NCBI GenBank assembly: GCA_031274995.1
Contig: JAISPJ010000015.1
Coordinates: 43,916-107,915, forward strand
Direction: 5' to 3'
Source: Azoarcus sp.
Lineage (GTDB): Bacteria > Pseudomonadota > Gammaproteobacteria > Burkholderiales > Rhodocyclaceae
Length of the DNA stretch: 64,000 nucleotides
Below the pieces are notes generated by a model. It was not told the DNA's origin. It saw nothing but the letters and a program-made list of their open reading frames with translations, and did no database searches. Positions 21,598-64,000 of this stretch are shown piece after piece. The position numbers and the translations under genes are program-made. Position 1 is the stretch's first letter; every line of letters begins with the position of its first letter.

Positions 21598-22713
21598 CTA
21601 GTGCGGCAGGCTGACCAGATGGAAGAAGGTTTCAAGTTCTTTGTGGATCGCCTCGGAACGCATACCGTTGCCCAGGTTGTCTATCACTTGCACGGAATAA
21701 CGGCACTGTTGGCCGCTGTGCCGGGCGATGCTGCGGGCGCGATCTTTGAAACTGGCGTAAGTCTGGCCGCGCGTCGCCAATAGCTGCTTGATGCCGGGTA
21801 TGGCCATGGCGCTGGTTTCACGCGCGGGCGGCCAGGCGGACTTGACAGTGACGTTGTTGCTGGTGCGCGGCAGTAATTCAATGGTGAGCAGGAATTGAAC
21901 CCTGCCGTCGTCATCGAACCAGCAGGGCGGGGCGGTTTTGTCGCCGAGCGTCTCCAGGCGGGCGCGCAAAAAGCTGACTTGCGCGAGCAGGGTGTTGTTG
22001 TTCTCATTGCCTGCCATACGCGGGGTGTTTCCGTTCCCTGCGCCGCTTGTGGTTAATCCGTTCAGCGTCGATTTGAACAGATTCGAATCGGTCAGCAGCC
22101 ATCGTCCCCACACGGGTTCCTGCCCTGGTATGAGCGGTAGTCCGAGTTCCCTTTCGACCAGGGTTTCAATATTTCGTTTGAAGTTGACGGCTGCCAGCGC
22201 ACGGGAAGCAATCTCGCTGTCGGTGAGTTTGGCCACGTTTTGATCGGACATGACCAGAAATTCCTGTTCCAGGCGTGCGCGCAGTTCGAGCGCCGAAGCC
22301 AGCGCCTCTACGCTTGCCCCGTCCAGGACAGGGGTTCTGCTCGCCCGGGTCAGTACTTTTTTTGCTTCGGTTAATCCCGCCAGTTGCGCGCCGAGTTCCT
22401 GTACCCGTTTCTTCTCGGTGGTGAGTTCTGCTTCCACCTTCGACTTGTCGAGCAGGTCATGGATGATTTTGTCGGGATTTGCGCCCATCTCCGCGAGTTG
22501 GGCCTGAAGATCCTTCTGGGCGGATTCGAATACCTGCTGTGTCAGGGGCAGGGCGCCTTCTTGCTGGAGCCGGTTCAGTCGGGCAACCGCCTCCGTGCGT
22601 GCCACGTCTGCGTCGGTATACATCCGGCTGAACGCGATCAACAGGAAACAAATAAGAATAAACGCGATCCCGACCAGGGAAAGCCTGAAAACGCTGTCGC
22701 CGCCTCTATACAT
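21598..22713 (-). CDS. Unrecognised single-TM coiled-coil protein, partner of the long rod protein
   Basis: The product is 371 aa with no family I can name. Visible parts are a short N-terminus (MYRGGDSVFR), one TM helix at about 9-29, a coiled coil at about 35-125 rich in A, E, K, L and Q, a helical middle (about 130-215) and a C-terminal domain at about 260-371. That domain has a PCWFDDDGRVQF motif (C264, W265), a second cysteine C337 in QQCRYSVQVID, and alternating beta-like strands. An OmpA-type peptidoglycan-binding signature is not seen. It lies 38 bp downstream of the 1,234-aa gene on the same strand. A two-component membrane assembly is inferred. Confidence 0.6.
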   Translation of the reverse strand: MYRGGDSVFRLSLVGIAFILICFLLIAFSRMYTDADVARTEAVARLNRLQQEGALPLTQQVFESAQKDLQAQLAEMGANPDKIIHDLLDKSKVEAELTTEKKRVQELGAQLAGLTEAKKVLTRASRTPVLDGASVEALASALELRARLEQEFLVMSDQNVAKLTDSEIASRALAAVNFKRNIETLVERELGLPLIPGQEPVWGRWLLTDSNLFKSTLNGLTTSGAGNGNTPRMAGNENNNTLLAQVSFLRARLETLGDKTAPPCWFDDDGRVQFLLTIELLPRTSNNVTVKSAWPPARETSAMAIPGIKQLLATRGQTYASFKDRARSIARHSGQQCRYSVQVIDNLGNGMRSEAIHKELETFFHLVSLPH

Positions 22714-22751: not shown

Positions 22752-25700
22752 TTATTTTTCGTCAGCCGTGCCGCTTGCCTGATCGTAGAAATATCGACGC
22801 ATCGACAGGAGCGCCTGCTTGATGATCGAGAGTTCTTTGTTCGACTGTTGGAGGCCGGCCTGTTGTTGGGACAGCAGGGCGAGCTGTGCCTGAAATGCGG
22901 ATGAGATCTCGTTTTGCTGCGAGTGGGTGGTTTCGATGATCTGTGCCAGGTCACGATTTTGTTCTTCCTGCTGCAAGCGGCTGGCTTCGATGATCTGTTT
23001 CATGGCATGGCTTTGCGCCACGATTGCGGACGAGACATCGCTGTACTGTTTCTGAGTGATTTCGAGTTGTTGGGTCAAGGCTTTGCCCTGCGCAATGACT
23101 GCGGTGGACATTTCGGACTGCCGGGCGCGGCCGGATTCGATCGACTGTCCCTGCTTGGTCATTGCGGTGGATATCTCGGCGTATTGCTTCTGGCCGGTTT
23201 CGATGTGCTGCGTCAATGCCCGGTTCTGGGACATGATCGTACCCGAGATGTCGGCTTGTTGCTTGCGGTTGCTCTCGATTTGTTGAGCCAGGGTTTGGCC
23301 TTGGGCGATGACTGCTTCCGAGATGTCCGCATACCGTTTCTGGCCGTCTTCGAGGTGCGCATTCAGGTTGTCGAACTGCTGCTGGCTGATATCGATCTGG
23401 CGGGCCAGCACCTGAGCCTGGGCAGCGAGCAAGCCTTCCGTGTCCTGGCTTTGTTTTTGTGCTGTGTCAATGTATTGGGTCAAAAGCTGCCCTTGGGCGA
23501 GAATCGCGTTGGACAGTTCGGCCTGTTGCTTCCGGGCAGCCTCGGCGGCCTCGTTTTGGGCAGCGGTTGCGGCGGAAATTTCGCCATATTGCTTCTGGCT
23601 GTTTTCGATCTGGCTGGACAACGCCTGTCCTTGGGCGGCAACTGCGGCAGACATTTCAATTTGCTGTTTGCGGCTGTCAGTGACATGTTGCTCCAACAAT
23701 TGGGACTGGGATTTGGCCGAAGCCGACATTTCGTCATGCTGCTCGCGAACGATTTCGATGTTCTCGGTCAATGCTTTCCCTTGGGCAAGGAGGGCTTGCG
23801 ATAATTCGCCGTAATGTTTCTTGCTGGTTTCTGTGAACTGGAGCAGGGTCTCGTTTTGTGCGGTGATTGCGCTCAGGGTCTCAGTGTGCTGTTCCTGATT
23901 GATCTCGATTTGCCGGGATGCGGCATGGCTTTGGGCGACGACGGCGCCCGACACGTCGGCATACTGGTGGTGGCTGTCTTCGACGAATTGCTTGAGCGCC
24001 TGGTTCTGTGTGGCGAAAGCGGTTGAAACGTCGGCCTGCTGTTGTCGGGAGAGTTCGATGTTCCGGGACAGCGCCTCGGTCTGGGTGACGATGACGGTGG
24101 AGATATCGGAGTACTGCTTCTGGCTGGTTTCGACGTACTGAACCAGGGCTTCGGATTGCGCAATGACTGCCGCCGATGCCTCTGCATGCTGTCGTTTGCT
24201 GCTTTCGACGAATTGCGCAAGTACTTCCTGTTGCTGCTGGCTGGTTTCAATCTGTTGGGTCAATGCCCGCCCTTGTGCGACGACCAGGGACGACAGTTCG
24301 GCGTATTGCTCGCGGCTCATGTCGACGTGTTTTTCGAGGGTTTCGCCCTGTGCCATGACCGACGCTGAGGCATCGAGCATTTGTTTCTGGCTGGACTCGA
24401 TGTATCGAATCAGCATCTGGGCCTGGGTTGCAGCCGAGTCCGTCAGATCGGTCTGCTGTTTGCTTTGGGCGAGCACCGCAGCGGATAGTTCCGCGAATTG
24501 CTCACGATTCGTGTCGACCTGCTGTGCAAGCGATTCGCTCTGCGCGACGATTGCGGCAGAGGCTTCGAGCAGTTGTTTCTGGCTGGTTTCGATGTAACGG
24601 GTCAGCGCCTGGGTGTGAGAGACGACTGCGGATGAAATTTCATTGTATTGCTTTCGGTTGTTGTCACTCTGGCGTTCCAGAACCTGGGCCTGAGCCTGGA
24701 CTGCGGCAATTGTCTGGGCCTGTTGCCCGACATTTTGAACCAGCGTCCTGCTCTGGGCCGAAATTTCGGCCAGAACCGCGTCATGTTGCTGCCGGCTGCT
24801 TTCGATGTGCTTGCTCAGTACCTCGCCCTGGGTGGTGACAGCGCCCGATACCTCGGCATAACTCTGGCTGTTGGCGTCGATGTGCTTGATGAGTGCCTCG
24901 GTTTGGCTGGCGAATGCGGTGGCTGCTTCCGACTGCTGTTGCCGATGGTTTTCGATGGATTCGGTCAGGGCCCGAGTCTGGGCAATCGCCATTTCGGATA
25001 AATCGCCCTGCTGTTTACGGGACATGTCGATCTGCTGTGCCAATGTCTCCGTCTGGACGGAGACTGCGGATGAAAGCCGTGTCTGTTGTTCGATGTTTTG
25101 AGCCAGCGCTTCGCCTTGGACCAACATCATGGCCGACGTGTCGGTGAATTGCTTGTGGTTGGTTTCAATCTGTTCGGCCAGGGCTGCTCCCTGAGTCTTG
25201 ATTGCCTCTGTCATTTCGGACTGCTGTTGCTGGCTGGCGACGACGTAGCGGGACATTTCCTGCGCCTGGGATGTCACCGCCTCCGACATGTCAGTGTATT
25301 GCTTGCTGCTGACGGAGATATGTTTGTTCAACGACTCTCCCTGAGCCTTGATCGAGGCGATGATCGTGTTCTGCTGCTGCTGGCTGACTTGCACGTATTT
25401 GCTCAATACCTCGGTCTGGGTTACAACCGCGGCCGACACCTGATCGATGTTGTCCTGTGCGGAATTCAGGGATTGGGCAATGGCCTCCATCGTTTCAACC
25501 TGCCCCTTGGAATTGGCAAGGATGTTTTCCTGTTCCTTGGCCAGTTCGATGATATGGCCCAGTGTTCCCCCGATTTCGGTGGAGCGTTCGCGTACTTCGG
25601 CCAAGGCAGGGGGGAGGTTGCTGAGAGAGGAGGTTACTTTTTCGGTCAGGGACATCAGGTTTTGCGCTGTTTGCTCGATGCTGCTGCCAAGGGTGTTCAT

Positions 25701-26456
25701 CGGCTTTTCGAGTGTATTGGCGAAATAGTCGTCGGGAAGCTTGATGCCTTCCCGCAAGCGTTTTTCGACCGCTTCCGTGTAGTTGTCCACGGAGCCAACC
25801 AATTTCTCGCTGGCTTTTTCGATGTTGGTGATGGAACTGGTGGTCATTTCCTTGTGCGATTGCGCAAGCCCGGTGAGAGAATTGGTAATCTCCCTGATGT
25901 ATTTCTCCGCCATGTTTGTGATGTTGGAGGAGACCTCTGTGGCACTGCTGGAAATTTGCGTGATTGCTTCGCGGGAGACGCTTCCAATCTGGGTGCTGAA
26001 ATTCTGCATATTTGCCAGCGCCTCGTTCAGTTGCCGGTACAGCTTGCGCGTGGCGCTGATGGCGTTTTCTTCGGCGGTATCCATTGCATCCACGAGGTTG
26101 GGCTTGAAGCCGACGTAGTAGAGCCGGGCAACGAGGCCGAGGACAATATAAGCCAGGGCCGATCCGAATCTCTGCGCGATGACGGACAATTGCATGGAAG
26201 AATCCTGCATGTCGAACAAACAGGCGGCAAGCGAAACGATCGTGGCGATAAAGCCGAGGTAGTAGCACGAGTCGCCGAAGTTCTCGTTTGAAAGATCCCG
26301 CTGATTGGTGAGTTCTCCCAAGAGGATGTACGCAAGGATGACCCCCAGTGGGATAGCCAGCCAGAACCAGAGTTCTGATATACCGAGAACGGTGCCGATT
26401 ACGGCAACGAGGATTTGCGCGAAAACCGCGGAGAGGAAAAAATATTTTGTGTTCAT
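22752..26456 (-). CDS. Giant membrane-anchored repeat rod protein (MotA/ExbB/ZorA-like outline)
   Basis: Not recognised as a named family. From the ATG at 26456 the protein has 1,234 aa; a TTG at 26486, only 4 bp after the argJ stop, would add 10. Four TM helices are predicted at about 5-26, 30-47, 65-82 and 96-116. The third (YYLGFIATIVSLAACLF) and fourth (FGSALAYIVLGLVARLYY) loosely resemble the TM pairs of MotA/TolQ/ZorA-type channels. A helical linker (about 120-340) leads into 34 tandem coiled-coil units at 342-1167, then a 67-residue tail. Methyl-accepting signalling domains are not seen. An ion-driven motor with a cytoplasmic rod is one inference; a scaffold is another. Confidence 0.6.
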   Translation of the reverse strand: MNTKYFFLSAVFAQILVAVIGTVLGISELWFWLAIPLGVILAYILLGELTNQRDLSNENFGDSCYYLGFIATIVSLAACLFDMQDSSMQLSVIAQRFGSALAYIVLGLVARLYYVGFKPNLVDAMDTAEENAISATRKLYRQLNEALANMQNFSTQIGSVSREAITQISSSATEVSSNITNMAEKYIREITNSLTGLAQSHKEMTTSSITNIEKASEKLVGSVDNYTEAVEKRLREGIKLPDDYFANTLEKPMNTLGSSIEQTAQNLMSLTEKVTSSLSNLPPALAEVRERSTEIGGTLGHIIELAKEQENILANSKGQVETMEAIAQSLNSAQDNIDQVSAAVVTQTEVLSKYVQVSQQQQNTIIASIKAQGESLNKHISVSSKQYTDMSEAVTSQAQEMSRYVVASQQQQSEMTEAIKTQGAALAEQIETNHKQFTDTSAMMLVQGEALAQNIEQQTRLSSAVSVQTETLAQQIDMSRKQQGDLSEMAIAQTRALTESIENHRQQQSEAATAFASQTEALIKHIDANSQSYAEVSGAVTTQGEVLSKHIESSRQQHDAVLAEISAQSRTLVQNVGQQAQTIAAVQAQAQVLERQSDNNRKQYNEISSAVVSHTQALTRYIETSQKQLLEASAAIVAQSESLAQQVDTNREQFAELSAAVLAQSKQQTDLTDSAATQAQMLIRYIESSQKQMLDASASVMAQGETLEKHVDMSREQYAELSSLVVAQGRALTQQIETSQQQQEVLAQFVESSKRQHAEASAAVIAQSEALVQYVETSQKQYSDISTVIVTQTEALSRNIELSRQQQADVSTAFATQNQALKQFVEDSHHQYADVSGAVVAQSHAASRQIEINQEQHTETLSAITAQNETLLQFTETSKKHYGELSQALLAQGKALTENIEIVREQHDEMSASAKSQSQLLEQHVTDSRKQQIEMSAAVAAQGQALSSQIENSQKQYGEISAATAAQNEAAEAARKQQAELSNAILAQGQLLTQYIDTAQKQSQDTEGLLAAQAQVLARQIDISQQQFDNLNAHLEDGQKRYADISEAVIAQGQTLAQQIESNRKQQADISGTIMSQNRALTQHIETGQKQYAEISTAMTKQGQSIESGRARQSEMSTAVIAQGKALTQQLEITQKQYSDVSSAIVAQSHAMKQIIEASRLQQEEQNRDLAQIIETTHSQQNEISSAFQAQLALLSQQQAGLQQSNKELSIIKQALLSMRRYFYDQASGTADEK
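22956..25433 (-). repeat. Tandem array of 34 coiled-coil units based on 25 residues (75 bp)
   Basis: Imperfect coding repeats with consensus close to sAVxAQsxALxqxIExSxkQyxeiS. I counted 34 consecutive units covering 826 residues. Of these 26 are exactly 25 residues; the others are 21 (four units), 14, 15, 24 and 39. Lengths of 21, 14 and 39 equal 3x7, 2x7 and 25+14, so heptad phase is largely kept. At the DNA level identity is moderate, so the array is old or diversified. Confidence 0.9.
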
Positions 26457-26490: not shown

Positions 26491-27729
26491 TCACGAGCGG
26501 TAGTCGGCGTTGATTTTTACATAGTCGTAGGAAAAATCGCAGGTCCATACCGTAGATTTTGCCTGTCCGCGCGCAAGATCGACACGCACGGTAAGTTCGG
26601 CATGTTTCATTATGCGCGCTCCGGTTTCTTCGGCGTAGCCCGCCGCGCGGCCTCCGCGTTCGGCGACGAGAGTTTCTTCTTCCGGGTTGCCGAGCCAGAC
26701 CCGCAGGCGTTCCACGTCGAGATCGTCGATGCCTGCGTAGCCTATTGCGGCAAGGATACGGCCAAGATTGGGGTCGGAAGCGAAGAAGGCAGTCTTGACG
26801 AGCGGCGAGTGTGCTATGGCATAGGCGACCCGGCGGGACTCCTCGCGGCCTGCACCGCCTTCGACCACGATGCTCATGAATTTTGTCGCGCCTTCGCCGT
26901 CGCGGATGATGGACTGAGCCAGCCGGATGGCGACTGAAGTGATGGTGTGGGCGAGCGTGCGGGCTTCATCGCTGAAGGCGTCCGTGATTTCAGCGTTGCC
27001 GGCCTGCCCGGTGGCGATGGCGATGAAGGAATCGTTGGTCGAGGTGTCGCCGTCGACAGTAATACTGTTGAACGAGGCATCCGCCGCTTCACGGGTGATG
27101 GATTCGAGCAGGGATTGGCTGACCGCTGCGTCGCAGGCGATGAATCCGAGCATGGTCGCCATGTTCGGGCGGATCATGCCGGCGCCTTTGGACATGCCGG
27201 TGACAGTGATGGTTTTGCCGTTGAGGGCGATCTGTTCCGAGACAGCCTTGGCGAGCGTGTCGGTGGTCATGATCGCGTGCGCGGCATCGAACCATGAGTC
27301 CGTCCGCAAGTCCGCTACCGCGCACGGCAGCCCTGTGAGCAGACGTTCTGTCGGCAGCGGTTCGAGGATGACTCCGGTGGAAAACGGCAGCACCTGGCAA
27401 GCGTCGATGGCGAGGATTTCCGCCAGCGCCCTGCAGGTGGTGCGGGCGCTGTCCAGTCCTTGTTTGCCGGTTCCGGCATTGGCGTTGCCGGTGTTGATGA
27501 CCAGTGCGCGGATGTTTCCGCCCGGCAGGTGTTCCCGGCATACCGTGACCGGCGCGGCGCAGAAGCGGTTTTGGGTGAAAACGCCCGCCACCCGGCTGCC
27601 GGGGGCCAGTTCGATGACCGTGAGGTCGTGCCGACCAGCCTTGCGGATACCCGCTTGCGTTACGCCGAGTCGCACGCCGGGTACGGGAAGCAGGGCAGTG
27701 GGGTTGGGTGTCTGCAAATTGACGGCCAT
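26491..27729 (-). CDS. argJ: Glutamate N-acetyltransferase / amino-acid acetyltransferase ArgJ
   Basis: Bifunctional arginine-biosynthesis enzyme that transfers acetyl from N-acetylornithine to glutamate. The 412-aa product has the self-cleavage site in [10 protein letters not shown], where T192 becomes the N-terminal nucleophile of the beta chain. Other family motifs are [22 protein letters not shown] and the C-terminal [10 protein letters not shown]. The start is 18 bp after secA, and the next gene begins within 4-34 bp of its stop, so all read as one operon. Confidence 0.95.
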
Positions 27730-32590: not shown

Positions 32591-33826
32591 TCAGACAAGC
32601 ACTTCCAGCGGTGGCGGATGACCGAGGAATGCGTGCGGGCTTGCGCTTGCGCCGTAGGCTCCTGACTGGAATATCACGATCAGGTCGCCCGGTTCGGCGC
32701 GTGGCAGGACCATGCGTTCGGCCAGAATATCGAGCGGTGTGCAGAGCGGGCCGACGATGGTGACGGATTCGGCCTTGATCGCGTGCATGCGGCTGCCGAC
32801 GGCGACAGGGTAGTTCTTGCGCAGTACCTGCCCGAAATTGCCGGAAGCGGCAAGGTGGTGGTGCATGCCGCCGTCGACGATCAGGAAGAGTTCGCCGCCC
32901 GAGACTTTGCGGTCGATGACGCGGCACACGTACAGGCCGGCCTCGCCGACCAGATAACGGCCAAGCTCAATGATGACTTCGGCTTGAGGGAATGTTTTCG
33001 CGGCTTCTTCAACGATGCCGGTGAGCGTGGTTCCGATCGGAGTCAGGTCAAGGCTTTGTTCGCCAGGGAAATACGGGATGCCGAAACCGCCTCCGAGGTT
33101 GATGACCTTGATCGGCGCGGGCGCGTCGGCGGTCAGTTCCGTGACGAGGCCGTAGCTCTTGCGCAATGCTTCGGCAATGGCGCCGGCCCGGAGATTCTGT
33201 GAGCCGGCAAAGAGATGGAACCCCTCGAACGCGAGCCCGGCTTCCCCGATGGTTTTCAGCAGTTCGGGCGTTCTGGCGGCATCGACGCCGAAGGGCTTCG
33301 GCCCTCCCCCCATCTTCATGCCTGCGGATTTGAGTTCAAAATCCGGGTTGATGCGCACCGCCACCCGTGCGGGCAAACCCAGTGCTTTCGAGGCAGCCGC
33401 CAGGAGAGGGACTTCGCGGAAAGATTCGATGATGACCAGAACGCCGGCGGCGACGGCCTGAAAGAGTTCGGTATCGTTTTTACCGGGGCCGGCAAAGCTG
33501 ATGTTACGCGGCGCAACGCCGGAATCGAGCGCCACTTTCAGTTCTCCGGCGGAAGCCACGTCACAACCATCGATCTGTGCTGCCATGTGCGCGACCAAGG
33601 CGGGCATCGGGTTGGCCTTGATGGCGTAATGCAACTTCAGCCGGGTAGGCAGCGCGGCGCGCAGTTCTTCGACGCGGCGCGTCAGCAAGTTGCGGTCATA
33701 TACGTAGAACGGCGTGCGCCCGGCACGTGCGACCAATTGTTTCAGGGGAAGCCCGCCAACAATCAATTCGCCATTGACGACGGGGAACAGTTTCATTGGG
33801 GCATGCAGCGGAGCGATCGAGTTCAT
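32591..33826 (-). CDS. PLP-dependent decarboxylase, exosortase A system-associated type
   Basis: Fold-III (alanine-racemase-like) decarboxylase of 411 aa, related to LysA. The PLP lysine is in LKLHYAIKANPMPAL. The substrate loops GGGFGIPYFPGEQ and ELGRYLVGEAG match the Orn/DAP/Arg decarboxylase family. The partner genes next door, an acyl-CoA ligase and an ACP, make it the decarboxylase typical of exosortase-A (EpsH) loci. True lysA is separate at 37.4 kb. The substrate is unknown. An internal ATG at 33796 is an alternative start. Confidence 0.8.
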   Translation of the reverse strand: MNSIAPLHAPMKLFPVVNGELIVGGLPLKQLVARAGRTPFYVYDRNLLTRRVEELRAALPTRLKLHYAIKANPMPALVAHMAAQIDGCDVASAGELKVALDSGVAPRNISFAGPGKNDTELFQAVAAGVLVIIESFREVPLLAAASKALGLPARVAVRINPDFELKSAGMKMGGGPKPFGVDAARTPELLKTIGEAGLAFEGFHLFAGSQNLRAGAIAEALRKSYGLVTELTADAPAPIKVINLGGGFGIPYFPGEQSLDLTPIGTTLTGIVEEAAKTFPQAEVIIELGRYLVGEAGLYVCRVIDRKVSGGELFLIVDGGMHHHLAASGNFGQVLRKNYPVAVGSRMHAIKAESVTIVGPLCTPLDILAERMVLPRAEPGDLIVIFQSGAYGASASPHAFLGHPPPLEVLV

Positions 33827-34102
33827 GATCCCGGACGAGTCCTGTTGTGTGTTCTATCTGGTTTGCAGACTTGGACTGAAACGCCATTTTGCCGGTTTCG
33901 GGTCGCTTCGCCATTTCGACGGGGCGACTCTCCGAAACGGTTCAGTAAAGCCTGTAGCGCCATACATGCTGGTCTCTCTCATCTCGCCATGAACGACGAG
34001 GTCCCGTGAAGCGGCTGAAGAGGGGCTTCCGCTTCATAAACGCTTGTCCTGCTTTATCCTCGCTACGAATGCCGGAGAATAAGGCTCTCGGCACGTTTTC
34101 GC

Positions 34103-35734
34103 TTACTCTACGCGAACTCCCGGGGCTTTTCCGGCTATTTCGCACAGCTTGCGGAATAATCTTGCGCGATCAATTTTACCGTTAGGATTACGCGGTAATG
34201 CTTCTTGCAATACCTCGATCCGGGCCGGGACCATATAGGACGGCAAATGGTGTCGGCACTCATCCGAGAGCCGCGCCACGAGCGTTTCCGGCTTGATTGT
34301 GCAGCCGGGGGCGGGGGTGACGGCCACGGCGATGCTTTGCCCCAGTGTGTCGTGAGGCAGGCCGAAAGCGGCGCATTCCCCGATCAACCCGGTTGCGTGG
34401 AGGATTTCTTCTATTTCGGTGGGACTGACCCGGTATCCCGACGTTTTGATCATTTCATCGCGGCGCCCAATGAAATACAGGAAGCCGTCCTCGTCGCGCC
34501 GCACGGTATCGCCGGAAAAAACCGCGATTTCCGGCCTCATCAGCCCTGCCGCGCGGACGCCGGCGTCCAGGGGCAGGGGTTTGTAGCGTTCGGCGGTTTT
34601 TTCGGGATCGTTCCAGTATCCGAGGCCGACCATTGCTCCGCGCTGCACCAGTTCGCCCGGCTCATTGGGTGCGCATTGGTTACCGTCCTCGCGCAACACG
34701 AGCACTTCGGCATCGGGGACCGCCTTGCCGATGGAACCGGGGCGGCGGTCGATTTCTTCGGGCGGCAGGTAGGTTGCGCGGAAGGCTTCGGTGAGGCCAT
34801 ACATCAGGTAGGGCCGGGCTGAAGGCAGCAGGGCGCGCAGACGATCCAGCGTGGCGCGCGGCATATGTCCGCCGGTGTTGGCGAAATAGCGCAGATATTC
34901 ATCGGTGCCCGCAGGCCACTTGAGTTGCGCGAGTTGTATCCAGAGCGGCGGCACGGCGGTCAGGCCTGTCACGCGCTCGCTTTCCACCGCTTTCAGCACG
35001 TCGCGCGGCAGCAGGTAATTGAGCAGCACCACGCATGCGCCTACGGCAAAGGCCGTGGTCAGTTGCGAGAAACCGGCGTCGAACGACAGTGGCAGTGCCG
35101 CGAGCAGCACATCGTCAGAGCGGTTTTCGAGGTAGTGGGCGACGCTTTGTGCTCCGGCAACCATATTGCGGTGGGACAGCACCACGCCCTTGGGAAGTCC
35201 CGTGCTGCCCGAAGTGTAGAGAATCGCGGTCATGTCGGCGTCGATGACGCGATGGCCGGGAACTTCCGGGGCCAATGCCAGCATCTCGTCCCATCCATGC
35301 GTGGTAAACGCCTGAGCGGTTGGTTCGGCTCCCGATGCGCCGGTCAGAACCAGATGGCGCAGGCCGGGACACGTGGCGAGCGTATCCGCAAGCCCGGCAA
35401 AACGTTCTGGACTGGTGACGAGGACGCATGCGCCGCTGTCGCGCAGGATATGGCTGACCTGCGCGGGCTTGAGCGCCGGATTGGCTGGCACGAACGCGCC
35501 GCCTGCCGCCGCAGCGCCAAAACAGGCGATGACGGTCTCGAATCGCTTGTCGAGCCAGACCGCAACCCGCTCGTTCCGGGCAAGCCCCAAGTGAACAAGC
35601 CCGCCCGCAAAAGCATCGACGGCACTACTAAGCTTTTGATAATTCAAAGAAATATACCGTGCTCTCAAGGCGACGGCATCCGGTGTGCGGGCAGCGGAAG
35701 AGCGAATCAGGTGATGAAGAAGAGTCACGGGCAT
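34103..35734 (-). CDS. Acyl-CoA ligase (AMP-forming), exosortase A system-associated type
   Basis: ANL-superfamily adenylating enzyme (543 aa from the ATG at 35734; a GTG at 35746 is possible). The P-loop-like motif is TAILYTSGSTGLPKGVVLSHRN, seen at about 165-185. YGLTEAF, the hinge GRRDEMIKTSGYRVSP and the C-terminal catalytic NPNGKIDR are also visible. It probably activates an acid for loading on the ACP encoded divergently 154 bp away. The assignment to the exosortase-A subfamily rests on the decarboxylase and ACP neighbours. Confidence 0.82.
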   Translation of the reverse strand: MPVTLLHHLIRSSAARTPDAVALRARYISLNYQKLSSAVDAFAGGLVHLGLARNERVAVWLDKRFETVIACFGAAAAGGAFVPANPALKPAQVSHILRDSGACVLVTSPERFAGLADTLATCPGLRHLVLTGASGAEPTAQAFTTHGWDEMLALAPEVPGHRVIDADMTAILYTSGSTGLPKGVVLSHRNMVAGAQSVAHYLENRSDDVLLAALPLSFDAGFSQLTTAFAVGACVVLLNYLLPRDVLKAVESERVTGLTAVPPLWIQLAQLKWPAGTDEYLRYFANTGGHMPRATLDRLRALLPSARPYLMYGLTEAFRATYLPPEEIDRRPGSIGKAVPDAEVLVLREDGNQCAPNEPGELVQRGAMVGLGYWNDPEKTAERYKPLPLDAGVRAAGLMRPEIAVFSGDTVRRDEDGFLYFIGRRDEMIKTSGYRVSPTEIEEILHATGLIGECAAFGLPHDTLGQSIAVAVTPAPGCTIKPETLVARLSDECRHHLPSYMVPARIEVLQEALPRNPNGKIDRARLFRKLCEIAGKAPGVRVE

Positions 35735-35888
35735 CGGGGAAGGCACGCTACGTTATCTGCCGATTTGATATTTTGGCCGCCCCTTGGCCGGGGCGCGATG
35801 TTGAGCCTGGAAAAAGACTGCCTATAATAACGGCACCCTCACAGATGGGTACCCCCTTTGTGAGCGGGGAGATCGGAGTCGGAAATTG

Positions 35889-61942: not shown

Positions 61943-62050
61943 GCGGCGTATGGCTGAGTGTTTTGTGTTGGGCGTCCGGCGTGCCGTGTTGACCGAACCC
62001 AGCGCTACGCCGTAGCACAGGCCACGCAGAACGCTCAACGCACAACGCAA

Positions 62051-62773
62051 ATGTCCATCCCCCGCCACATCGCCATCGTCATGGACGGCAATGGCCGCTG
62101 GGCCAAGCGCCGTCTGCTGCCGCGCGCGGCCGGGCACCGGCAAGGCATGGAATCGCTGCGCCGCTGCATCCGAGCGTGCCTGGCGCGCGGCGTGCAAGTG
62201 CTGACGGTATTCGCGTTTTCCTCGGAGAACTGGCGGCGGCCCGCCGACGAGGTCAATCAACTGATGGAATTGCTGGCCAAGGCGCTGGCGCGCGAAGTGC
62301 CGGAGCTTGCCGAGGCAGGCGTGCGCATCCATTTCGTCGGCGACCGGCCCAGCCTGGCCGAGCACGTCCGGCAAGGCTTGGTGCAGGCGGAGGCGGACAC
62401 CGCGCACAACGGCAAGCTCACGCTCAACGTCTGCTTCAACTACGGCGGCCGCTGGGACATCGCGCAGGCGGCGGCGCAGCTGGCCGAACGCGGTCAATCC
62501 ATCACCGAAGCGGCACTGGCCGGCGCGCTGGCGCTGGCGCACGTGCCCGACCCCGACCTGTTGATCCGCACCGGCGGCGAGCAGCGCCTTTCGAATTTTC
62601 TGCTGTGGCAATGCGCCTACAGCGAACTGTTTTTCAGCGAGCGCTTGTGGCCCGACTTTGACGAAGCAGCGCTCGACGAGGCCATTGCCGCTTACGGTGC
62701 GCGCGAACGGCGCTTTGGCCGTACCACCGAACAGGTGCAGGCGCAGCCGCCCGCCGCGTCCGTGGCGGTTTGA
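62051..62773 (+). CDS. uppS: Undecaprenyl diphosphate synthase UppS
   Basis: cis-Prenyltransferase that makes the C55 lipid carrier for peptidoglycan and LPS. The product has 240 aa from the ATG at 62051. The catalytic aspartate is in HIAIVMDGNGRWAKRR; TVFAFSSENWRRP and LLIRTGGEQRLSNFLLWQ are family motifs. The 108-bp gap after frr contains inverted sequence (TTTTGTGTTGGGCG and CGCTCAACGCACAACGC) that loosely pairs. GC is high. Confidence 0.96.
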   Translation: MSIPRHIAIVMDGNGRWAKRRLLPRAAGHRQGMESLRRCIRACLARGVQVLTVFAFSSENWRRPADEVNQLMELLAKALAREVPELAEAGVRIHFVGDRPSLAEHVRQGLVQAEADTAHNGKLTLNVCFNYGGRWDIAQAAAQLAERGQSITEAALAGALALAHVPDPDLLIRTGGEQRLSNFLLWQCAYSELFFSERLWPDFDEAALDEAIAAYGARERRFGRTTEQVQAQPPAASVAV

Positions 62774-62783
62774 AAATCCGTTC

Positions 62784-63644
62784 ATGCTCAAACAGCGCGT
62801 CTTGACCGCCGCCGTGCTGCTGGCGGTGTTCATCGCGGCGCTGTCCGCGCCCACCCCCATGCCGTTTCTGGCGCTGACCTTGCTGCTGATTGCCGCCGGG
62901 GGCTGGGAATGGTCGCGCCTGGCCGGCTGGCCGGGTTGGCCCGCTTGGGGCTCGGGCGCGTTGTGCGCGGCGCTTGGCTTGGCCGCGTGGCAGGCACATT
63001 GGCCCGGCGACATGCTTGCGCCGTGGTGGATCGCGGGCGTCGCTTGGATCGTCGGCGGCAGCTGGCTGCTGCGGCGCGGCGTGGCGCGCTGGCCGGCGCT
63101 GCCGCGCTGGCTGCGCTGGGGCATCGGCATGGTGATGATGCTCGCCGCCTGGCTGGCGATGGCACAGGCGCGCGCGCGCGGCGTCAACTTTCTGCTGTCG
63201 GCGCTGGCGCTGGTGTGGGCGGCCGACATTGCCGCGTATTTTTGCGGCCGCGCGTTGGGCGGCAAGCTGACCGGCGGGCGCAAGCTCGCGCTCGCCATCA
63301 GCCCCGGCAAAAGCTGGGAAGGCGCGGCGGGCGGTTTCATCGGCGTGCTGCTGACGGGCGCCATCTGGATAGGGGTAGACCATGCCTATCAGTTGTCGCA
63401 CAGCCTGTACACCATCCTGTGGCAACGCGGTCCGGTCTGGTTCGCTGGCGCGCTGGCGTTGCTCACCGCCATGAGCATCGTGGGCGACCTGACCGAATCG
63501 CTGGTCAAGCGCGCCGCCGGCGTCAAGGATTCAAGCGCGCTGCTGCCCGGACACGGCGGCGTGCTCGATCGCATGGACGCGCTGTTGCCCACGCTGCCGC
63601 TGGCGCTGGCCATCACAGGGTTGGCGGCGGGAAGGTTGTCATGA
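62784..63644 (+). CDS. cdsA: Phosphatidate cytidylyltransferase CdsA
   Basis: Makes CDP-diacylglycerol for phospholipid synthesis. The product has 286 aa from the ATG at 62784 and about eight TM helices. The C-terminal signature KRAAGVKDSSALLPGHGGVLDRMDAL is present at about 235-260, here split in two blocks. It starts 10 bp after uppS, and its stop overlaps the dxr ATG by 4 bp. Confidence 0.95.
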   Translation: MLKQRVLTAAVLLAVFIAALSAPTPMPFLALTLLLIAAGGWEWSRLAGWPGWPAWGSGALCAALGLAAWQAHWPGDMLAPWWIAGVAWIVGGSWLLRRGVARWPALPRWLRWGIGMVMMLAAWLAMAQARARGVNFLLSALALVWAADIAAYFCGRALGGKLTGGRKLALAISPGKSWEGAAGGFIGVLLTGAIWIGVDHAYQLSHSLYTILWQRGPVWFAGALALLTAMSIVGDLTESLVKRAAGVKDSSALLPGHGGVLDRMDALLPTLPLALAITGLAAGRLS

Positions 63645-64000
63645 GCACCCAGCCCTCCCGGTTGCGCTTGGCGGTACTGGGTTCCACCGGCTCGATCGGC
63701 GCCAACACGCTGGACGTGGTGGCGCGCCACCCGGACCGCTTCGAGGTGGTGGCGCTGGCTGCCGCCACGCAGGTTGACAAAATGCTGGCGCAATGCGCGC
63801 GCTTCCAACCCCGCGTGGCCGTGCTGGCGAGCGCGCCGCACGCCCGCGAACTGGCCCGCCGGATCGCCGATGCCCAGCTACCGACGCGCGTCGCATCAGG
63901 CCCAGAGGCTATCGAAGAAATAGCAAGCGCGCCGGACGTGGACGCGGTAATGGCCGCCATCGTCGGCGCCGCCGGCTTGGCGCCGTGCCTGGCGGCGGCG
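63641..64000 (+). CDS. dxr: 1-deoxy-D-xylulose 5-phosphate reductoisomerase Dxr, 5' part
   Basis: First 120 codons of the MEP-pathway enzyme; the window edge cuts it. LRLAVLGSTGSIGANTLDVV is the N-terminal NADPH-binding glycine motif (GSTGSIG), followed by DAVMAAIVGAAGLAPCLAA, which matches the region before the substrate domain. The ATG overlaps the cdsA stop (ATGA). The order frr-uppS-cdsA-dxr is standard. Confidence 0.93.
   Translation, partial: MSTQPSRLRLAVLGSTGSIGANTLDVVARHPDRFEVVALAAATQVDKMLAQCARFQPRVAVLASAPHARELARRIADAQLPTRVASGPEAIEEIASAPDVDAVMAAIVGAAGLAPCLAAA

What the first reader, a model, noticed from the sequence alone, without database searches (positions are those of the whole stretch)
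22752..26456. Four-TM protein with a cytoplasmic rod of about 120 nm, encoded behind secA-argJ
The sequence shows four N-terminal TM helices, a helical linker, then 826 residues of uninterrupted coiled-coil repeats and a short tail. TM3 and TM4 loosely resemble MotA/TolQ/ExbB/ZorA channel helices. If the repeats form one continuous helix, the rod would be about 120 nm (0.15 nm per residue). Zorya ZorA is the closest concept known to me, a channel with a long cytoplasmic tail, but the usual ZorB (OmpA domain) and effectors are absent. With its 371-aa partner it could be a new ion-driven or force-transmitting assembly, a cell-length scaffold, or a defence component.
Basis: partly seen in the sequence, partly recalled or inferred. 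Interest (0 to 1): 0.8.

Follow-up and report, generated by a model that had tools for sequence, protein, structure and literature searches.

The report
Proton motor remade as giant rod
Two neighbouring bacterial genes encode divergent relatives of the TolQ-TolR type of membrane proton motor that lack the acidic residue on which proton drive would depend and carry a far longer tail than their relatives do, so the pair is predicted to work as a passive, envelope-anchored rod about 140 nm long, which would be a natural case of a molecular motor turned into a scaffold.

Summary
In detail: on the minus strand, a 1234-aa protein with four predicted membrane helices and a tail of 25-residue repeats, then a one-helix 371-aa partner. 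In other Proteobacteria the pair is half of a patchy four-gene cluster (g1-g2-g3-g4) whose pooled neighbours match many defence models and which in 7 of 21 loci adjoins a thermonuclease-type gene (fused in one alphaproteobacterium). There g3 aligns with TolQ at both pore threonines, and g4 has a membrane glutamate where TolR has aspartate. In the window's genus the pair is core (12 of 12 good genomes), g2 is gone, the glutamate is glycine in 50 of 50 rows, an arginine or lysine stands five residues before it, the TM4 threonine is lost in 10 of 14, and the rod protein measures 1043-1342 instead of 403-615 aa. One branch unites these copies (100/100); dN/dS is 0.10-0.37. I read it as a likely de-energised stator kept as an anchored rod; stoichiometry, straightness and function are untested. 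The ancestral cluster looks like an undescribed Zorya-like defence system.

The parts
22752..26456 (-). Rod gene, 1234 aa: divergent TolQ/ExbB/ZorA-type subunit with giant cytoplasmic tail
26103..26456 (-). Residues 1-118: four predicted membrane helices; 7 residues between helices 2 and 3 (no cytoplasmic domain there)
   Evidence: AlphaFold2 helices; alignment
26145..26150 (-). Residues 103-104 (Tyr-Ile) where the relatives have Ser/Thr-Thr (the TolQ-type TM4 pore threonine)
   Evidence: T109 of L033: 24 of 24 E-type, 4 of 14 G-type
25467..26096 (-). Residues 121-330: helical linker that aligns with the short relatives
   Evidence: alignment A1
22815..25466 (-). Residues 331-1214: 25-residue repeats, no proline, 17% glutamine
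21598..22713 (-). Partner gene, 371 aa: TolR/MotB-type subunit, one membrane helix, helical stalk, C-terminal domain
22669..22671 (-). Gly15 of the partner, in place of the membrane Glu of the relatives
22684..22686 (-). Arg10 of the partner, Gln in the relatives
21601..21936 (-). Partner residues 260-371: C-terminal domain with Cys264 and Cys337 invariant in 52 sequences; closest solved fold TolR
26491..27729 (-). argJ, upstream neighbour on the same strand

Best explanation
The rod and its partner are a divergent TolQ/ExbB-type and TolR/MotB-type pair that lacks the membrane glutamate its short-tailed relatives carry, so it likely cannot be driven by protons and likely works as a passive, envelope-anchored complex holding a predicted rod of about 140 nm in the cytoplasm. 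Shown by sequence: the kinship of the relatives with TolQ, Gly and Arg/Lys where the relatives have Glu and Gln, the absence of g2, the 25-residue repeat and the longer protein, the fixation in one genus, and purifying selection. Predicted from models: four membrane helices, helical tail, TolR-like C-terminal domain. Inferred by analogy with ZorAB, TolQR and ExbBD: five rods around two partners, the tails bundled into one fibre, the partner fixed to the cell wall or outer envelope. Inferred without a test: that the fibre's job is mechanical or positional (a membrane-tied strut or tether reaching into the cytoplasm), that it no longer rotates or conducts, and that it came from a defence machine whose other genes were dropped.
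Confidence: 0.5

Rival explanations
1. It is still an ion-driven motor: the conserved acid at position 6 of the partner, the clade-specific acid at rod position 85, or another site has taken over, and the long tail transmits torque or senses load deep in the cytoplasm.
For: Asp/Glu at partner position 6 in 50 of 50; charged residue at rod position 85 in 11 of 14 against 1 of 24; purifying selection; YYLGFI, Gly112 and Arg116 (L033 numbering) of TM3-TM4 still conserved.
Against: Position 6 is, by eye, also acidic in the E-type copies that have the Glu, so it is not a replacement; position 85 lies outside the predicted helix (57-83); the same scan lists no other clade-specific charge within the rod's helices; Arg/Lys stands at partner position 10; the TM4 threonine is gone in 10 of 14.
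Confidence: 0.2
2. It is a defence sensor, Zorya-like, whose long tail meets incoming phage DNA or proteins and calls effectors encoded elsewhere.
For: Neighbours of 18 four-gene loci match 187 PADLOC families in 146 proteins, and nucleases adjoin some clusters; the ZorA extension is needed for Zorya defence (PMC11890865).
Against: In the window's genus the pair is core, not patchy (12 of 12), lacks g2 and has no nuclease homologue within the stretches held; the neighbours of 14 related loci match 7 PADLOC families in 106 proteins, among them MzaA, a type II methyltransferase and a reverse transcriptase.
Confidence: 0.15
3. The tail is not one straight rod: it folds into antiparallel bundles or stays dynamic, and its length is tolerated rather than used.
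For: AlphaFold confidence at the start of the tail is only 54-72; the protein varies from 1043 to 1342 aa in the genus, and 5 of 14 copies have a proline beyond residue 300.
Against: No proline after residue 283 in the window copy and a steady 3.56-residue hydrophobic period; dN/dS 0.10-0.32 beyond residue 330 in six pairs.
Confidence: 0.15

Closest known systems
TolQ-TolR / ExbB-ExbD
   Same: TM3-TM4 sequence and both pore threonines align with TolQ in the relatives tested; partner helix pattern and C-terminal fold closest to TolR
   Different: Extra first membrane helix, no cytoplasmic domain before the TolQ-like helices, giant C-terminal tail; partner lacks the acid and has a long helical stalk; no TolA/TonB partner looked for or seen beside it
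Zorya ZorA-ZorB (types I, II, III)
   Same: Long cytoplasmic C-terminal tail on the stator subunit; relatives have an OmpA-family partner, defence neighbours and a nuclease
   Different: PADLOC ZorA models match only the coiled coil; no Zorya effector model among the 7 families of related loci; window copy has no membrane acid, and no OmpA domain was found by Pfam
MotA-MotB / PomAB flagellar stator
   Same: Superfamily PF01618 in the relatives; one-helix partner with a C-terminal domain
   Different: No torque-generating cytoplasmic domain between helices 2 and 3; alignment with two MotA-type proteins of the host at or near chance in 7 of 8 E-type comparisons
GldL-GldM (type 9 secretion; recalled, not tested)
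   Same: 5:2 motor in which charged residues are arranged differently from TolQR
   Different: Different domains; here no acid was found to have moved into a helix of the rod subunit

Membership tests
MotA/TolQ/ExbB superfamily (PF01618) | Match to the family model above its curated cut-off | tested here: not met
   Window copy: no match listed. Relatives just below the cut-off: 21.8, 19.4 and 17.5 bits against 22.9; 30 of 38 match at E 0.5 or better, best 2.1e-6, bits not shown
MotA/TolQ/ExbB superfamily (PF01618) | Pore threonines in the last two membrane helices | tested here: inconclusive
   Kept in 24 of 24 E-type relatives at both sites; window keeps the TM3 Thr (residue 72) and has Ile at the TM4 site; G-type 8 of 14 and 4 of 14
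TolR/ExbD/MotB/ZorB partner | Acidic residue near the start of the membrane helix | tested here: not met
   Gly15 in the window and in 50 of 50 rows of its clade; Glu in 22 of 22 relatives
TolR/ExbD partner | TolR/ExbD periplasmic fold | tested here: inconclusive
Zorya | ZorC/D, ZorE or ZorF/G encoded beside ZorA-ZorB | tested here: inconclusive
   No Zorya model among the 7 PADLOC families in 106 neighbours of 14 related loci; the window's own neighbours (argJ, secA and hppA by reading) were not scanned
Zorya | ZorA membrane core | tested here: inconclusive
5:2 rotary motor | Five stator subunits around two partner helices | not testable with these tools
   No multimer prediction available; no structure
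Zorya-like four-gene cluster of the relatives | g1 and g2 beside the pair | tested here: not met
   g2 in 1 of 21 genomes of the genus, not this one (G212 rings as positive control). g1 not found in the own genome, without a positive control in that call, and not labelled beside the 16 other window-type loci read

The most novel reading that the evidence does not exclude
Evolution switched off a 5:2 proton motor from a Zorya-like defence machine with a periplasmic nuclease, removed its ion-carrying acid, and kept it in one whole bacterial genus as a membrane-anchored fibre of about 140 nm: a motor-derived bacterial cytoskeletal rod.
Probability: 0.4. Interest if true: 0.82.

Novelty: new variant of a known kind. 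Interest (0 to 1): 0.62.

Why it matters
The well-studied TolQR, ExbBD, MotAB and ZorAB complexes depend on a membrane acid (established knowledge; passages). A natural, selected, genus-wide copy without it would let one ask what a stator does when it cannot turn, and would separate the structural from the motor role of ZorA-like tails. The relatives also point to a cluster whose g1 and g2 have no convincing Pfam or PADLOC family (two members tested), in which a Zorya-like motor is tied to a nuclease; the Rhodospirillaceae fusion of partner and nuclease would place that nuclease in the periplasm, where phage DNA enters (inference).

Tried and rejected
Profile-profile comparison of the family with TolQ and MotA alignments gave nothing; direct alignment and Pfam did better, so I rest on those and report both. 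In one search the host's ExbB-type proteins gave mixed results (first one: 0, 2, 9 and 90 of 200 shuffles as good; second: 88, 105, 9 and 17) and the MotA types were at or near chance except one of eight (0 of 200). Sequence search of solved structures gave no relative (no match; best E 0.043, mostly helical or coiled-coil chains). Foldseek gave nothing significant. PADLOC ZorA hits on the rod were rejected as evidence because they lie in the coiled coil. Odd hits (HeR, RipC, C5_CUB, apolipoprotein and others) were set aside as membrane or coiled-coil composition. A search for rods of similar length found only two relatives, both 1044 aa. One search's plasmid hits first looked like coiled-coil noise; (g2) hit the same genera and several of the same records, and searches showed four-gene clusters. 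A viral contig scan with g2 found no relative. The idea that the host lacks normal Tol/Mot motors was dropped: five PF01618 proteins over the cut-off in the own genome. Paper searches (titles and abstract openings of what was listed) named no such cluster; preprints are not held. Of PMC12505986 I saw passages only; one search was a listing.

Rows dropped: P0003 (fragment of the window's own protein) and L042 from the acid count; the L024, L032, L041 and L043 partners were not in that count because of split frames or divergence (L024 and L043 read Glu, L041, L042 shows a membrane Glu without formal alignment, L032 was not resolved). L013, L063 and L068 rods were left out of the rod alignment (two cut by contig ends, one not picked up in the listing; L068's partner has Gly). 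Of 155 predicted neighbour proteins from 20 four-gene loci, 146 from 18 loci were scanned, to fit the limits.
Full report
OBSERVATION. AlphaFold2 on residues 1-300 with 38 sequences gives four helices of membrane length (3-24, 29-49, 57-83, 90-117; blocks of pLDDT 75-95) and then long helices at lower confidence (54-72). The tail repeats every 25 residues: identity autocorrelation 0.26 at 25 and 0.23 at 50, where 200 shuffles reached at most 0.137; the hydrophobic period is 3.560 residues, between the heptad's 3.5 and the straight helix's 3.6, so a nearly straight coiled coil is expected (inference). There is no proline after residue 283. At 0.15 nm per residue, 284-1234 would span about 142 nm if continuous (inference). 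The DNA shows no tandem array of that period.

WHAT FINDS IT. Pfam and NCBIfam give the window's two proteins no match near a curated cut-off; PADLOC ZorA models hit only the rod's coiled coil, and nothing hits the partner in PADLOC. The partner has 36 matches at E 1e-3 or better (7997 candidates scored; one is a fragment of the window's own protein), several named Azoarcus sp. or Betaproteobacteria bacterium MAG. In whole genomes of the family the partner is found in 7 of 199, five of them in the window's genus. In that genus the partner is in 18 of 21 genomes and the rod's N-terminus in 17 of 21; in both cases 12 of 12 of the genomes at least 90% complete and at most 5% contaminated. 17 genomes, the window's included, carry the window type of partner, each with rod sequence beside it (the rod is cut by a contig end in G173 and G213); secA and/or argJ was labelled upstream in 7 of the 17, and some of the other contigs end too soon to tell. 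One genome of the genus (G212, 87% complete) has the other type, below.

THE ANCESTRAL CLUSTER. A scan of 84,980 species genomes with a short relative gave 27 loci. In 21 beta- and gammaproteobacterial loci the pair is the second half of a four-gene run: g1 (about 478 aa), g2 (about 268 aa), g3 (the rod homologue) and g4 (the partner homologue), some with split frames. Alphaproteobacterial L041 and L043 have the same order (their g4 read). Four loci have g3-g4 only: Propionivibrio L022, Sulfuritalea L017, Rhodocyclaceae L018 and the divergent Caulobacter L042; g2 was not found in the genomes of the first three (L042 not tested). g2 occurs in 9 of 369 genomes of the class, some matches partial or weak, so the cluster is patchy. 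On annotated alphaproteobacterial plasmids the four-gene order recurs in the four regions read, with g4 annotated as OmpA family protein in three of four and a thermonuclease family protein within 1 kb in two of four.

DEFENCE SETTING OF THE RELATIVES. 146 neighbour proteins of 18 four-gene loci match 187 PADLOC families at E 1e-10 or better; the 25 shown include Hachiman HamB, LmuB, PD-T4-1, TmtA and a type III methyltransferase (one protein can match many models). 106 neighbours of 14 window-type loci match 7 (MzaA, a type II methyltransferase, two reverse-transcriptase models and others). Flank lengths, genomes and my crude gene calling differ between the sets, and the window's own neighbours were not scanned, so this is a strong contrast but not a matched test. 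Pfam finds staphylococcal-nuclease homologues in 6 of 146, Endonuclease I in 2 and integrases in 3. My homology scan places a nuclease of that type directly beside the cluster in 7 of 21 beta/gamma loci (L020, L024 split, L027, L031, L035, L037 cut short, L038); several have a signal-like N-terminus by eye. None was found in the window or the window-type stretches held. In Rhodospirillaceae L041, g4 is one 670-aa frame with a membrane helix, a coil, a stretch that I read as OmpA-like (recalled motif) and a C-terminal nuclease match at residues 517-666. That fusion puts the nuclease on the periplasmic side if the topology is as in TolR (inference).

WHAT DIFFERS IN THE WINDOW'S CLADE. Partner position 15 is Gly in 50 of 50 clade rows and position 10 is Arg in 48 and Lys in 2; the rows overlap between the protein search and the genome loci, and the loci plus window alone give 16 of 16. 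In 22 of 22 E-type rows the sites are Glu and Gln. Alphaproteobacterial copies also have Glu (L116-L119; L043; L041), so Glu is probably ancestral (inference). In the rod, the TM3 threonine is kept in 8 of 14 and the TM4 threonine in 4 of 14, against 24 of 24 and 24 of 24; Phe76 of L033 is Ala in 12 of 14. The one clearly clade-specific charge found in the rod is at residue 85, just outside helix 3 (11 of 14 against 1 of 24); none was listed inside a helix. The rod protein is 1043-1342 aa in 14 clade members and 403-615 aa in 27 others; its first 330 residues align with the short relatives, so the growth is mainly in the repeat (inference). A maximum-likelihood tree of 42 partners puts all 19 Gly rows on one branch (100/100), in a group (100/99) with E-type four-gene copies from the same genus and from Betaproteobacteria bacterium MS502-43. 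dN/dS is 0.10-0.37 in 24 comparisons (six pairs, four segments), so the genes are maintained.

HOW IT LIKELY WORKS. For Zorya, print says that ion flow through the motor, peptidoglycan binding and the structured ZorA tail are important, that the ZorA extension is required against all tested phages, and that the ZorB aspartate packs against a ring of serine/threonine (PMC11890865, abstract and section 6 part 1; I did not see the stated outcome for the D24N construct alone). The window pair lacks the acid and one of the two threonines. The simplest account is a stator core that can no longer conduct, kept because its tail and its C-terminal domain are useful: an inner-membrane anchor carrying a long, slightly acidic rod without Cys or Trp beyond residue 330 (net charge -39 over 904 residues), which argues against simple DNA binding. 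What the rod holds or spaces is not known; I commit to a passive strut or tether at about even odds.

NOVELTY. It is a new variant of a known kind: the superfamily is known, but a clade-wide absence of the motor acid together with such a tail was not named in the listings. The ancestral cluster, if confirmed as defence, would be a finding of its own.

Noticed in passing
L041:2714-4726 (+): A single 670-aa frame joins a membrane helix with a Glu, a coil, an OmpA-like stretch (by eye) and a C-terminal staphylococcal-nuclease match: a fusion that ties the motor partner to a nuclease.
   Followed up: partly
L019-L021, L023-L040, L116-L119: Unnamed four-gene cluster (g1-g2-TolQ/ZorA-like-TolR/ZorB-like), in part with a thermonuclease-type neighbour and, pooled, among defence genes; a candidate anti-phage system.
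   Followed up: partly
g2, for example L033:7201-8007: About 268-aa protein with one apparent membrane helix and invariant residues around CP..G, a D.T motif, two cysteines and SD (19 sequences); no Pfam or PADLOC family at E 0.1 in the two members tested.
   Followed up: no
L020:12570-13634, L027:3933-5015, L028:7974-9035: Similar 353-360-aa proteins, by eye, near the cluster in three hosts; the L028 copy has a weak PtuB/HNH-like patch and a HIT-domain neighbour (only L028 tested).
   Followed up: no
window 32591-35746: A PLP-dependent decarboxylase-like gene beside an AMP-binding ligase-like gene, which recall suggests could belong to an exosortase-type polysaccharide locus; names not tested.
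   Followed up: no
window 62001-64000: GC rises to 0.698, against 0.49-0.63 in the rest of the window.
   Followed up: no
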